In this document: positions 59,627 through 64,000 of the stretch, one piece after another
How positions within the stretch are numbered: the first letter of the stretch is position 1
Layout of the letters: every line of letters starts with the position of its first letter
Assembly: GCF_016278365.1 (NCBI RefSeq)
Contig: NZ_JADQBZ010000004.1
Location: 62,001-126,000, forward strand
Source of the DNA: Methanolobus sp.
GTDB lineage: Archaea; Halobacteriota; Methanosarcinia; Methanosarcinales; Methanosarcinaceae
Reading direction: 5' to 3'
Length of the DNA: 64,000 nt
The notes under the pieces: model-generated
Seen by the model: the letters and a program-made list of their open reading frames with translations, nothing else
The model's database searches: none
Told to the model about the DNA's origin: nothing
Position numbers and translations under genes: made by a program

Positions 59627-59749
59627 GATTACTAATCACTGTTGCAGGATTTAACTGTTATCAATGCTTTCCCCTCCCACTCGCAAGTTCAATATCCCTT
59701 CAGGCAATAATCTTTATATCTAAGCAGGACATTAGAACACGAACCAAGT

Positions 59750-59821
59750 GTCCCGGTAGGGTAGCGGATATCCTTGAGGCCTGCGGAGCCTTAGACCCGA
59801 GTTCGATCCTCGGTCGGGACG
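59750..59821 (+). tRNA. tRNA-Arg (GCG)
   Basis: Acceptor GTCCCGG/TCGGGAC, anticodon loop CTGCGGA with GCG at 59783-59785, T-arm CCGAG TTCGATC CTCGG, discriminator G. A TATA-like CTTTATATC at 59712-59720 gives a short leader, and a T run (59824-59836) follows. The AT-rich accessory island begins right after it, a common integration position. Confidence 0.93.
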
Positions 59822-60056
59822 TATATTTCTTTTTTACAGTTTAAAGATTTAGTTTCTTATTTAGTCATATTGAAATGTACTTAAGAGGCAAGGATTCTAT
59901 AGCTAAGAACTAGTCTACTACTTGATATTTATGCTATTCTGTGTTTTATGGTTTCTCTTCGGCAGTTGATTGCGCAGAATACACTAAAGCACAACTAGGC
60001 TACGTTCTGTGGACATGACTGGGTTACGGTTGTATTGACTTTGGTACATTGTCACA

Positions 60057-60067
60057 TTTATATATTA
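60057..60067 (+). promoter_or_regulatory. TATA box of the accessory operon
   Basis: TTTATATATTA centred about 26 bp before ATG 60087. No SD precedes this ATG, so the operon mRNA is probably leaderless. Imperfect direct repeats (ACTAGGCTACG near 59993 and ACTGGGTTACG near 60019) lie upstream and could be regulatory. Confidence 0.65.
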
Positions 60068-60086: not shown

Positions 60087-62627
60087 ATGAGTAAGGTTCC
60101 TTTCAAAGTCTCAGCGAGGACAGCAAGACTAATAGGCAGAGAAAATGTAGCTAATGCTAACGGAGCTGTCGTAGAGTTAGTTAAAAACACATATGATGCT
60201 GATGCAGAAAACTGTATTATTTATTTTGATAACAAATATCATTCAATACCACACACTTTGTCAAGTGGTGAATATTCTAAACTCTCTACTATGTCTGATA
60301 TTATTGAGACTCATTACATTGCTGATATAGAAGGGAACTATACTTTAAATTTAAATGCCAATGCATCAACTATTGGGCTCAACACTTTCTTTTCAAATCT
60401 GTGCTGCATTTACATCATTGATAATGGAACGGGAATGAATGATTCGATTATCCAAAATCATTGGATGACAATAGGTACTGACATTAAAGATAAGGATTAT
60501 ATTTCACCAAAGAGCCGCGTTAAAACAGGTGCTAAAGGGATTGGAAGATTCGCACTTGATAGACTAGGTAAAGTGTGTGAAATGTATACATTACCAGCTG
60601 GTAAGACGAATGGATATTTGTGGAAAGTAGACTGGTCTGAATTTGAAAAACCGAATCTATCTATAGACCAGATTTTAGCAGATTTGACTGAAATTCCAAA
60701 TATGGATTTGAAACAGACGATCAAATCGATAACTAATGACTATTCTTTACTGTCTGATTTGATACAAGATCTCAAATTAGATAGTGGAACTATACTTAAA
60801 ATTTGCTTACTGAATGATGACTGGGATCAATATTTGGTCAGTAAAATATTTGAGAACTTAGAAATACTTGTTCCTCCAAAAGAAATATCTGATTTTAAAA
60901 TAACTCTATTGAGTTCTCTTGAAGAAAAAGAGTATGGGGACGTCTCGCCCGATTTTTGTGATGAATACGATTACAAAGTAAGTGCAAAATATTTGGATGG
61001 TGCTAACAAAACTGTTAAAATTACAATAGAGAGAAATGAGTTAGACATCTCATCGATTGAAACAAAATATATGAACGTAATTGAACATGAAAAAATGAAA
61101 GAGTTCCCATACAATTTTGAAACATTTAAAAATAAATCTTTTATCATTGAGAGGACACTTTCAAGTCTTCTGCCAGGATTCAAAGATGTAGATGAAAAAA
61201 AAACACTTGATAAAATAGGTGACTTCAGTTTTACATTCTATTACTTAAAAAATCAAGTTCCAACAGATGAAAAAGGAGTTTATCCCTATAAATCTATCCA
61301 TTCGTCTTTTCGCAAAGAGTGGTTGCAAAAGTTTGGTGGAATCAAAATATTTAGGGATGGTTTTCGTATTCGGCCATATGGAGAACCAGGTTATGATTGG
61401 CTCGATTTAGGAAACAGAGCTGCAAAAAGCCCAGGTAGTGCAGGGCAAACATTGGGTGGTTATAGAGTACGTCCTACTCAAATCTCTGGCTCACTTCATA
61501 TTTCAAGAATAACTAATGTAAACTTTCAAGATAAATCTGGTAGAGAAGGAATTCAAGAAAATGATGAGTTTAAAGTGCTAAAAGAACTTCTTCTCGGAAT
61601 TATCTCTGTTTTTGAAAATGACAGAAATCATATAATGTATTACTTTAACAAGGTTCATAAAAGCACCGTTGCAGCTAAGAAAAAACAAGCAGAGGAGTTA
61701 GCAAAAAAAATAGCTGAGGAAGAAACAAGAAAAAAAGATGAAGATAAAGCCGACAATACTTCTCAAGAATCTAACGGTAAAACCGAGGCCAGTGAAGATA
61801 AGGACGAAGATGTTATCATACTTGCAAACGGATTTGCAGCCCAGAAAAATGAATTAGATGAAAAAAATGAAGAGATTAGAATTTCAAGGAGCCTTAGTAG
61901 TTCTGGCTTGCTCATAGCATCTTTTGCACATGAATTCAAAACATTACATAGAAAATTATCAAGTAGGACTGCCTCATTAAGGGATTTATTAGAAGATACA
62001 TTGCCTAAAACAAAAGTCGAGCACTTACCGGCTTTTAAAAACCCTTACGTTCTAATTGACGAAATGGAAAACCAAGATGCTAAATTATCTCAATGGCTTA
62101 AAATTTCTCTTTTAACTTTGAAAAAGGACAAGAGAAAACGTACAAATATTGATATAAAAGAGTATTTTAAAGAATTGCATGCCACGTGGAATGTGTTACT
62201 ATCTCAACGTTCTATTCTACTTGTTACTCCTTCAGGGGAAGAGTCTTGCGAAATAAAGGTATTACCCATAGATTTGGATAGTATATTCTCAAATTTAATA
62301 GCAAATTCGATTGATGCATTCAAGCGTGATGGTGCTTCCAAGGAAAGGATTATAACAATAACTTGGGAAAAAAAGAACGACAATTTGATAATATTCTATT
62401 CTGATACAGGTTGTGGGCTCTCAGCAGATTATGAAAATCCTGAAGTTATATTCAATGCTTTTGTAACCACAAAAAGAGACAAACATGGCAATATCATAGG
62501 CACTGGACTTGGGATGTGGATAGTAAAAAATATAATTGACGATTACGCCGGAAAGATAAATATTTTAAAACCTGAAGTTGGGTTTGGCTTAGAAATTATT
62601 TTGCCAATAAGGGGAAGAGGAGAGTAA
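60087..62627 (+). CDS. Dual GHKL protein: MutL/Hsp90-like ATPase plus histidine-kinase module
   Basis: 846 aa, soluble. N-terminal GHKL ATPase: N-box ELVKNTYDADA (residues 30-40), G1 IIDNGTGM (110-117), G2 KTGAKGIGRFALDRLG (146-161). The middle (about 400-560) has GGIKIFRDGFRIRPYGEPGY, SGREGIQ, then a Lys/Glu-rich linker. The C-terminus is a histidine kinase: H-box IASFAHEFKTL with His615, N-box SNLIANSIDAF (Asn740), G1 YSDTGCGL, G2 IGTGLGMWIV. No sensor or membrane domain is seen. A receiver protein, an HNH nuclease and a DNA methylase follow in the same operon. GHKL proteins occur in several phage-defence systems; this exact layout I do not recognise. Confidence 0.85.
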   Translation: MSKVPFKVSARTARLIGRENVANANGAVVELVKNTYDADAENCIIYFDNKYHSIPHTLSSGEYSKLSTMSDIIETHYIADIEGNYTLNLNANASTIGLNTFFSNLCCIYIIDNGTGMNDSIIQNHWMTIGTDIKDKDYISPKSRVKTGAKGIGRFALDRLGKVCEMYTLPAGKTNGYLWKVDWSEFEKPNLSIDQILADLTEIPNMDLKQTIKSITNDYSLLSDLIQDLKLDSGTILKICLLNDDWDQYLVSKIFENLEILVPPKEISDFKITLLSSLEEKEYGDVSPDFCDEYDYKVSAKYLDGANKTVKITIERNELDISSIETKYMNVIEHEKMKEFPYNFETFKNKSFIIERTLSSLLPGFKDVDEKKTLDKIGDFSFTFYYLKNQVPTDEKGVYPYKSIHSSFRKEWLQKFGGIKIFRDGFRIRPYGEPGYDWLDLGNRAAKSPGSAGQTLGGYRVRPTQISGSLHISRITNVNFQDKSGREGIQENDEFKVLKELLLGIISVFENDRNHIMYYFNKVHKSTVAAKKKQAEELAKKIAEEETRKKDEDKADNTSQESNGKTEASEDKDEDVIILANGFAAQKNELDEKNEEIRISRSLSSSGLLIASFAHEFKTLHRKLSSRTASLRDLLEDTLPKTKVEHLPAFKNPYVLIDEMENQDAKLSQWLKISLLTLKKDKRKRTNIDIKEYFKELHATWNVLLSQRSILLVTPSGEESCEIKVLPIDLDSIFSNLIANSIDAFKRDGASKERIITITWEKKNDNLIIFYSDTGCGLSADYENPEVIFNAFVTTKRDKHGNIIGTGLGMWIVKNIIDDYAGKINILKPEVGFGLEIILPIRGRGE

Positions 62628-62628
62628 T

Positions 62629-63270
62629 ATAATTACTGAAAAAAAGTTTTATAAGGTTGGCTATATTGATGAAGACGAGGATGACATTCATGAATTTCAG
62701 CGTGCTTTCGATAAGTACTTTGAAATAATCGTGTTTAAACCAGACCTAAAAACAGAACTAAATGACATCTTATCATGGATGAATGAGAAAAACATTGATA
62801 TAATCATAGTCGATTTTAACTTAAAAGAAAATGATTCAGTGAATATATTTGGAAACCAGATTCTTGAAATGATAAACAATAGATATCTCAACTTTCCAAT
62901 GTTTATGTTTACAGGTCATGAGCTAGATGCTATTAACACATCAGATCCTTCCATAGATGATTTAATTCATGAAAAGGATTCTGTTTATGAAAATAAGGAG
63001 TTGATGGCTCAGCGCATCACTAATAAAATTGAAAACTACAACACAAAATTGGAATCAGCTCATTTAGAATATAGTGCTCTTGTTAAAAAGGAAAAATTAA
63101 GCTTGGAAGAAGAAGAACAACTGCTTAGGTTGGACTTATTTCTGGAAGAAAGTCATGATAAAACGCAAGCAAAAGCAGTACTATCAAAACGTAGTGAGTA
63201 TCTGGAAGAGTTGACTAAATTAGTTGAAAAAGCAGATGCAATATTAAAAGAGATTGATCAAAATGAGTGA
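62629..63270 (+). CDS. Response-regulator receiver protein, ATA (or ATT) start
   Basis: 213 aa. Residues about 8-125 form a receiver: acidic pocket YIDEDEDD, phospho-acceptor Asp in IIIVDFNLKEND, Thr in MFTGHE, Lys in HEKDSVYEN. The rest is a helical, coiled-coil tail (LSLEEEEQLLRLDLFLEESH) rather than a DNA-binding domain, so output is probably by protein contact. The first canonical codon (GTG 62731) would delete half the receiver. Upstream only ATA 62629 and ATT 62632 fit; ATA is 6 nt after GGAG. It follows the kinase by 1 bp and overlaps the HNH gene, and is its likely phospho-partner. Confidence 0.83.
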   Translation: MITEKKFYKVGYIDEDEDDIHEFQRAFDKYFEIIVFKPDLKTELNDILSWMNEKNIDIIIVDFNLKENDSVNIFGNQILEMINNRYLNFPMFMFTGHELDAINTSDPSIDDLIHEKDSVYENKELMAQRITNKIENYNTKLESAHLEYSALVKKEKLSLEEEEQLLRLDLFLEESHDKTQAKAVLSKRSEYLEELTKLVEKADAILKEIDQNE

Positions 63271-63853
63271 TTTCAGGCTTATCTCTCCAAAAAGAAGAAA
63301 TCAAACTAAAGAAGTTAAAGACTATAGATTACATAAGAATGATTTGTGCGAGGACTTCAAAAACAGTTGCGGATACTGTGGTGATAATGATGCCTTTTCG
63401 GGAGGGAAAAGGTTCTATCAAATTGACCATTTTGTACCAAAGTCCTTCGAAGAAATTGATCGCGCGGAATATTCGAATTTAGTGTATTCATGCTTTTTTT
63501 GCAACAATAGAAAAAGAAAAGATTGGCCAACTGGCAATATTAATCAGCATAATGATGGAATACGAGGATACATCGATCCTTGTCACGACGATTTCCCAGG
63601 GCATTTCAAAAGAAATGAAAGAGGGGATATTATCCCCTGTTCTCAGCTTGGTGATTACATGCATCTTCACTTAAATTTGGGATTACGAAGACATGCCTTA
63701 ATATGGAATTTATCCCGTTTTGAGATTCGAATAGAAAGACTCAAAAAGCTTAAAGAAAAAGGTTTATTAAAAGATCACATTTTAGAATACTGCACTCTAT
63801 TAGAAAAATATTATGAAGAAATGATGTACTTACGTGTTATAAATAATGAGTGA
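63263..63853 (+). CDS. HNH endonuclease
   Basis: 196 aa. Zinc-finger HNH nuclease: CGYCGD (about residues 33-38), the catalytic-type QIDHFVPKSFEEI, NLVYSCFFCNNRKRKDWP with the second Cys pair. The C-terminal helical part is unassigned. ATG 63263 lies inside the receiver gene's end (8-bp overlap), so both are translated together. Similar HNH proteins serve as effectors in Septu (PtuB) and other defence systems; here it probably cuts nucleic acid when signalled by the kinase-receiver pair, which is inference. Confidence 0.85.
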   Translation: MSDFRLISPKRRNQTKEVKDYRLHKNDLCEDFKNSCGYCGDNDAFSGGKRFYQIDHFVPKSFEEIDRAEYSNLVYSCFFCNNRKRKDWPTGNINQHNDGIRGYIDPCHDDFPGHFKRNERGDIIPCSQLGDYMHLHLNLGLRRHALIWNLSRFEIRIERLKKLKEKGLLKDHILEYCTLLEKYYEEMMYLRVINNE

Positions 63854-63873
63854 TATTTGGTATGAGGTACCAA

Positions 63874-64000
63874 ATGGAAAATCAAAAACAGAACGGAAGT
63901 TACTATACATCTCCATTACTAGCAAATTTTATAGTAAAGCATATTTTTGAACATTATGTACTCCCTAAGAAAGTAAAAATACTAGAGCCTAGTTGTGGGG
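63874..64000 (+). CDS. N6-adenine DNA methyltransferase, N-terminal fragment
   Basis: Only 42 codons are in the window. MENQKQNGSYYTSPLLANFI (ATG 63874, GAGGT SD 5 nt upstream) followed by KILEPSCG is the classic opening of N-6 DNA methylases of type I, IIG and BREX-like systems: the YYTS/P pre-motif and SAM motif I. A longer start at ATG 63862 is possible. It lies 20 bp after the HNH gene. A long protein continuing past the edge is expected. Confidence 0.82.
   Translation, partial: MENQKQNGSYYTSPLLANFIVKHIFEHYVLPKKVKILEPSCG

What the first reader, a model, noticed from the sequence alone, without database searches (positions are those of the whole stretch)
60087..62627. One protein with two different GHKL ATPase modules
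The N-terminal module looks MutL/Hsp90-like (ELVKNTYDADA, G2 with TGAKGIGRF). The C-terminal module is a full histidine kinase with an H-box His and its own N, G1 and G2 boxes. A dimeric clamp-type ATPase that senses DNA or protein and drives a kinase would be an unusual cytosolic sensor, because no sensory or membrane domain is present.
Basis: partly seen in the sequence, partly recalled or inferred. Interest (0 to 1): 0.6.

Follow-up and report, generated by a model that had tools for sequence, protein, structure and literature searches.

The report
MORC-kinase signalling restriction cassette in archaea
The protein really does join a MORC/MutL-type DNA-clamp ATPase to a complete histidine kinase, and it is the first gene of a mobile cassette (kinase, receiver, HNH nuclease, DNA methylase) that looks like a DNA-defence system switched on by phosphate signalling, a variant of an arrangement published for bacteria in 2021.

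Summary
ORF 60087-62627 (846 aa) carries two separate GHKL modules (PF13589, E 6e-14; PF02518, E 8e-15). All ATP motifs of both modules and His615 are conserved across 19 relatives, except for one relative with a truncated N-terminus. An AlphaFold model (pLDDT 81) matches human MORC2 ATPase structures and histidine-kinase cores (HK853, ZraS). No membrane segment was found.

The gene starts a cassette beside tRNA-Arg: kinase, a receiver protein with no DNA-binding domain, an HNH nuclease, and an Eco57I-type adenine methylase that runs off the window. The same order occurs in Bacteroidota, Alphaproteobacteria, Deinococcota, Verrucomicrobia, IMG/VR contigs and two other archaea. In viral contigs and plasmids, every strong match to the nuclease sat next to the kinase and/or receiver. 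Its GC is 33% against 46% around it.

Best reading: a restriction-modification-like defence cassette in which a MORC clamp senses foreign DNA and a phosphorelay licenses the nuclease. The first part is well supported; the phosphate gating is inferred.

The two-GHKL kinase plus receiver layout near restriction systems was published in 2021 (PMC8011034). This is a separate clade, missed by those Pfam models, with its own fixed nuclease.

The parts
59749..59822 (+). tRNA-Arg (GCG); insertion hotspot for the cassette
   Evidence: ARAGORN. Alignment to four congeneric genomes stops just after it (L009 1824-1863); in three of them it resumes downstream of the cassette, the fourth contig ends there.
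60057..60064 (+). archaeal TATA-box-like TTTATATA about 25 nt before the ATG; would fit a leaderless transcript
   Evidence: read from sequence; inference, not tested
60087..62627 (+). MORC-like ATPase/histidine kinase, 846 aa
60087..60686 (+). N-terminal GHKL (MORC-like) ATPase module, residues 1-200: E30/N34/D37, D112NGTGM, TGAKGIGRF
   Evidence: PF13589; motifs conserved; MORC2 fold matches
60687..61556 (+). transducer/S5-like region, residues ~201-490, with GGIKIFRDGFRIRPYG
   Evidence: AF2 secondary structure and MORC2 alignment span of ~550 columns; domain label is inference
61563..62114 (+). long helices running into DHp, residues 493-676; phospho-acceptor His615 at 61929-61931
   Evidence: AF2 helices 493-556, 570-638, 653-676; H615 invariant
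62265..62606 (+). C-terminal catalytic HATPase_c domain, residues 727-840 (N, G1, G2 boxes)
   Evidence: PF02518 E 8.3e-15; PDB histidine-kinase matches
62632..63270 (+). receiver (response-regulator-like) protein with helical C-terminus; acidic D13-E14, phospho-acceptor D61 (62812-62814), T94. No ATG/GTG/TTG start in position: ATT 62632 or ATA 62629 follows the kinase stop
   Evidence: PF00072 24.5 bits, below the 30.2 cut-off; profile hits PDB receivers; AF2 pLDDT 86, fold matches = receivers; D61/T94 19 of 19
63263..63853 (+). HNH endonuclease, PtuB-like: CxxC, DH56, N72, CxxCN81
   Evidence: PF01844 E 6.4e-8; nearest solved structures PtuB; H56/N72/N81 19 of 19
63850..64000 (+). Eco57I-type N6-adenine methyltransferase, 547 aa, continues past the window end (L009 5851-7494)
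   Evidence: PF07669 E 2.6e-14, PF22837 E 2.3e-34

Best explanation
The gene is the sensor of a four-gene, laterally mobile restriction-modification-like defence cassette. The N-terminal MORC-like ATPase dimerises on ATP and closes as a clamp on DNA (inferred from MORC/MutL relatives). The long helices carry that state to the DHp bundle, where the C-terminal kinase domain phosphorylates His615 in the dimer (inferred from intact boxes). Phosphate passes to Asp61 of the receiver (inferred). The receiver has no recognisable DNA-binding domain, so it probably acts by protein contact, most likely licensing or recruiting the HNH nuclease encoded by the overlapping next gene, which cuts foreign DNA. 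The adenine methylase marks self DNA. Shown: the protein anatomy, intact catalytic residues, the fixed gene set, and signs of horizontal spread. Not shown: DNA sensing, phosphotransfer, nuclease control, or phage protection.
For: Two intact GHKL modules and His615. Model matches MORC2, including DNA-bound entries, and histidine-kinase cores. Receiver fold with an invariant Asp and only helices after it. HNH catalytic residues invariant. The kinase-receiver-HNH set is together in 19 aligned loci. Reciprocal searches started from the HNH found it beside kinase and/or receiver in 10 of 10 strong viral-contig hits, in 5 of 5 plasmid records that also have the kinase, and in 3 of 3 archaeal genomes. 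Kinase, receiver and HNH distances correlate at r 0.83-0.89. An Eco57I-type methylase is adjacent in 16 of 18 loci with room to see it. Hotspot at tRNA-Arg, GC 33% vs 46%, archaeal members inside bacterial branches.
Against: No experiment. Nothing shows phosphotransfer or that the receiver touches the HNH; no receiver-HNH fusion was seen. Methylases differ between cassettes (15-19% identity in some, sometimes upstream), so the methylase may be a looser partner. The window's receiver lacks a standard start codon, so this copy could be weakly expressed or decaying. Mantel correlation alone would also arise from simple co-inheritance.
Confidence: 0.5

Rival explanations
1. The kinase and receiver do not gate cleavage; they tune or time expression of the nuclease and methylase (a regulatory pair beside an R-M system).
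For: Proposed for the related family in PMC8011034. Relatives with other receiver proteins sit beside many different R-M genes.
Against: The receiver has no DNA-binding domain recognisable by sequence or model. Strong HNH matches never occur without kinase and/or receiver in the scanned sets, closer than a regulator needs to be. The genes overlap, so they are probably co-expressed.
Confidence: 0.15
2. The histidine-kinase half is used structurally: the protein is a paraMORC-type restriction subunit and ATP-driven clamping directly loads the HNH nuclease, with phosphate playing no part.
For: MORC/paraMORC proteins in R-M operons are described without a kinase (PMC2292703). PADLOC REase_II and NCBIfam BbrUII models match the N-terminal half or relatives.
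Against: His615, the N/G1/G2 boxes and the receiver Asp61 are invariant in 19 of 19 loci, hard to explain without phosphotransfer.
Confidence: 0.15
3. An abortive-infection system: phage infection triggers the kinase, the phosphorylated receiver unleashes an HNH that degrades DNA non-specifically, and the methylase is protection or a passenger.
For: HNH nearest solved relatives are PtuB effectors of retron/Septu systems. The methylase is variable.
Against: An Eco57I-type methylase is adjacent in 16 of 18 loci, as expected for self/non-self discrimination by methylation.
Confidence: 0.2

Closest known systems
HEF_HK (PF19191) / Response_reg_2 (PF19192) two-component-like pairs, PMC8011034
   Same: N-terminal HATPase_c_3, a His-Glu-Phe type H-box, C-terminal HATPase_c, no membrane segment, adjacent receiver gene, R-M neighbourhood
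   Different: Neither Pfam model matches: best HEF_HK E 0.13 among 27 relatives, no Response_reg_2 match among 14 receivers. Fixed HNH plus adenine methylase rather than C5-methylase/Vsr. Here in archaea, whereas that study covered bacteria.
paraMORC/MORC ATPases of R-M systems (PMC2292703); human MORC2
   Same: GHKL plus transducer fold, motifs, R-M company, mobile hotspots
   Different: Fused to a complete histidine kinase; no helicase in the operon
PtuB (Septu, retron Ec78) HNH effectors
   Same: HNH domain sequence and size
   Different: Partner is a kinase-receiver pair, not the PtuA ATPase; NCBIfam scores are below the family cut-offs
Detocs two-component phage defence (from my own knowledge)
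   Same: Histidine kinase plus receiver used for defence rather than transcription
   Different: No PADLOC match naming it for the kinase or receiver; nuclease is a separate gene; MORC-type sensor
Eco57I-type R-M methylases
   Same: Methylase family
   Different: The Eco57I system carries its nuclease in its own polypeptides (own knowledge); here a separate HNH with a signalling pair

Membership tests
Histidine kinase | H-box His in DHp plus N, G1, G2 boxes in HATPase_c | tested here: met
Histidine kinase | autophosphorylation on the H-box His | not testable with these tools
   needs biochemistry
MORC/paraMORC ATPase | GHKL with motif I catalytic Glu/Asn, DxGxG, GxKGxG followed by an S5-like domain | tested here: met
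   motifs; fold matches to MORC2 ATPase over ~550 columns; TM-scores moderate
[quoted passage not shown]
   motif not given in the text read
paraMORC R-M operons | superfamily II helicase in the operon | tested here: not met
   no helicase gene in the cassette
HEF_HK / Response_reg_2 pair | PF19191 match | tested here: not met
   no match for this protein; 1 of 27 relatives at E 0.13
HEF_HK / Response_reg_2 pair | PF19192 match in the adjacent receiver | tested here: not met
   a true PF19192 archaeal protein exists elsewhere and is different
HEF_HK / Response_reg_2 pair | HATPase_c_3 + H-box + HATPase_c order, soluble, receiver gene adjacent, R-M genes near | tested here: met
Response regulator | (beta-alpha)5 receiver with acidic pair, Asp, Thr, Lys | tested here: met
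   fold, D13/D61/T94; the Lys column is not strictly conserved and PF00072 is below cut-off
Type II restriction-modification | DNA methylase and nuclease in one operon | tested here: met
Type II restriction-modification | methylase and nuclease share a recognition site | not testable with these tools
   needs methylome and cleavage assays
PtuB / TIGR02646 | score above family cut-off and PtuA partner | tested here: not met
   31 bits vs 52 (TIGR02646), 22.6 vs 150 (PtuB); no PtuA in the cassette
Detocs | receiver fused to its effector | tested here: not met
   receiver has only helices after REC; HNH is a separate gene in all loci. The defining feature is from my own knowledge.

The most novel reading that the evidence does not exclude
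A restriction system whose cutting is licensed by a phosphorelay: a MORC-type DNA clamp recognises non-self DNA, its fused histidine kinase phosphorylates a receiver with no DNA-binding domain, and the receiver switches on a separate HNH nuclease, a signalling layer not described for restriction enzymes in the papers I could search.
Probability: 0.4. Interest if true: 0.82.

Novelty: new variant of a known kind. Interest (0 to 1): 0.56.

Why it matters
It would tie a MORC-family ATPase, whose eukaryotic members silence genes by handling DNA, to a readable output (phosphate on a receiver). Clamp closure on DNA could then be followed by a simple phosphorylation assay. It also offers a compact cassette for asking whether nucleic-acid immunity can be gated by two-component signalling, and it shows that this class of systems moves between bacteria and archaea.

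Tried and rejected
Chance or mis-called second GHKL: rejected, both modules are conserved and folded. Membership of the published Pfam families HEF_HK/Response_reg_2: models tested, not met, though the layout is the same. Receiver-nuclease fusion as direct proof: I looked at longer receiver proteins of related cassettes (~340-465 aa); no nuclease domain was recognised in the five scanned with Pfam and no fusion with HNH was found. Direct repeats marking an integrated element at the tRNA: none found. A mobile copy in E. coli for easy testing: the Klebsiella cassette has no near match in E. coli genomes, and that copy is broken. Setting the search centre on the Verrucomicrobia genome was not possible. 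Literature: seven searches found no experimental study of this protein class; a 2026 predictor paper (PMC13092281) mentions HATPase and REC domains in predicted systems only in a figure legend, and whether they are this clade is unknown.

Full report
Observation. The ORF at 60087-62627 encodes 846 aa. Pfam finds HATPase_c_3 near the N-terminus (E 6e-14) and HATPase_c at residues 728-840 (E 8.3e-15). Alignment of 19 homologues that share the same downstream genes shows full conservation of both nucleotide sites, except that L057 has lost motif I (truncated N-terminus beside an IS66 element). These are E30, N34, D37, D112xGxG and GxKGxG in the first module, and N736, N740, D773xGxG and GxGxG (805-809) in the second, with His615 in 19 of 19. 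In a wider set of 27 two-GHKL proteins His615 is still invariant.

Structure. AlphaFold2 with 27 sequences gave mean pLDDT 81.4 and pTM 0.62. The PDB fold search gave two independent groups of matches: histidine-kinase cores (ZraS, HK853, CpxA, YycG) and human MORC2 ATPase, including entries with DNA (9cdj, 9cdh, 9cdg, 5of9; E about 1e-11 to 1e-10 over about 550 columns). The two halves are joined by long helices (493-556, 570-638); the second carries His615 and, with helix 653-676, forms the DHp hairpin. TM-scores to MORC2 are moderate (0.38-0.45 by target length), so 'MORC-like' is a fold-level statement. No segment reaches membrane hydrophobicity.

The rest of the cassette. The next gene encodes a receiver protein. 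Its sequence matches Response_reg below the cut-off (24.5 vs 30.2 bits), but a profile of 10 relatives finds solved response regulators, and its model (pLDDT 86) is a receiver followed by three helices with no recognisable helix-turn-helix. The acidic residue D13, the phospho-acceptor D61 and T94 are conserved (D13 in 18, the others in 19 of 19). The third gene is an HNH nuclease whose nearest solved relatives are PtuB proteins, with H56, N72 and N81 conserved in all 19. The fourth, mostly beyond the window, is an Eco57I-type adenine methylase (PF07669, PF22837). The receiver/HNH and HNH/methylase genes overlap.

Is the set fixed? From the kinase I found the same order in a Verrucomicrobia MAG, an unassigned bacterial MAG (followed there by HsdM), plasmids of Bacteroides, Ensifer, Salipiger and Deinococcus (methylase upstream), and IMG/VR contigs. 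Searching from the HNH instead, all ten strong viral-contig hits (HNH profile E below 1e-40) sat beside the receiver, nine with the kinase as well (the tenth contig starts inside the cassette), and the weak hits did not. All five plasmid records with an HNH match were records already found with the kinase, and in 393 genomes of the archaeal phylum three had the HNH, each with kinase, receiver and a methylase. Protein distances correlate: kinase-receiver 0.89, kinase-HNH 0.86, receiver-HNH 0.83, with the methylase lower (0.67-0.71). An Eco57I-type methylase is adjacent in 16 of 18 loci with room to see it, upstream in some, and of different sequence in several. The core is therefore kinase-receiver-HNH, with an adenine methylase as the usual partner.

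Mobility. The cassette begins just after tRNA-Arg. Four congeneric genomes align up to that tRNA and not into the cassette; in one (G247) a different module with a DprA-like protein and another HNH protein occupies the same spot. GC is 33% against 46% outside, about five standard deviations from same-sized windows. In a maximum-likelihood tree the HNH-linked kinases form one clade (98/95). The archaeal members fall in two places, this one and G387 beside a Bacteroides/IMG-VR pair, and G354 beside a bacterial MAG. The two long-branch members (Deinococcus, L068) are less surely placed.

Relation to what is known. A 2021 study (PMC8011034) described soluble proteins with HATPase_c_3 + HEF_HK + HATPase_c, linked in 91.6% of regions to a Response_reg_2 gene and enriched near R-M genes, and proposed descent from paraMORCs. 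The window protein has that layout and a His-Glu-Phe H-box. But neither Pfam model matches it or its clade, and the one clear archaeal Response_reg_2 protein I found is a different kind of receiver. Related two-GHKL proteins with longer receiver partners also sit beside methylases and a DUF4420 nuclease, so the class is broader than the published families. paraMORC operons in PMC2292703 have no kinase fusion in the text searched. PADLOC has no model that names this cassette; its REase_II models match many relatives.

Mechanism. I propose that the MORC clamp reads foreign DNA and the phosphorelay licenses the HNH nuclease (confidence 0.5). The sensing, phosphotransfer and nuclease steps are inferred from intact residues and gene fixation. 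The strongest argument for phosphate use is that His615 and receiver Asp61 are kept in every cassette; the strongest argument against transcriptional control is the absence of a recognisable DNA-binding domain in the receiver.

Caveats. The receiver in this genome has no ATG, GTG or TTG at the expected start. ATT 62632 or ATA 62629 lies right after the kinase stop, behind a purine-rich stretch, and the nearest GTG (62731) would remove the first strand and its acidic pair. Its closest relatives use ATG at this place. It may be a rare start codon or a decaying gene.

Noticed in passing
window 62629-62634: Receiver gene lacks a standard start codon (ATA/ATT in place of ATG), while its closest archaeal relative (L140) has ATG; rare start or decay.
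   Followed up: partly
L059 8986-11256; L056 8941-11568; L057 around 9094: Kinase genes in the Klebsiella and Rhizobium plasmids are split by frame breaks, and the Salipiger copy has a truncated N-terminus beside an IS66 element; suggests the cassette is often lost or costly.
   Followed up: partly
L072 6433-8392, L069, L073, L084, L089, L090, L047, L051, L052: A sister group of two-GHKL kinases is followed by a longer receiver protein (~335-410 aa) and a ~230-315 aa protein with a conserved HxD...PxxH...PR pattern; the two of these third proteins that were scanned (L047, L051) have no Pfam match.
   Followed up: partly
L086, L070, L071, L074-L080, L082, L085, L087: Another sister group has a receiver protein of ~440-465 aa, most with a CDxAQxK-like motif and a C-terminal SRPG, no recognised domain so far, and usually no third gene.
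   Followed up: partly
L133 1922-4570 (G247): At the same tRNA-Arg site a related archaeon carries a phosphoribosyltransferase-like protein, a DprA-family protein and an HNH protein: possibly another defence module.
   Followed up: partly
L146 2538-4912 (G175): A true Response_reg_2 protein in an archaeon with an adjacent truncated HEF-type kinase fragment, flanked by transposase-like genes.
   Followed up: partly
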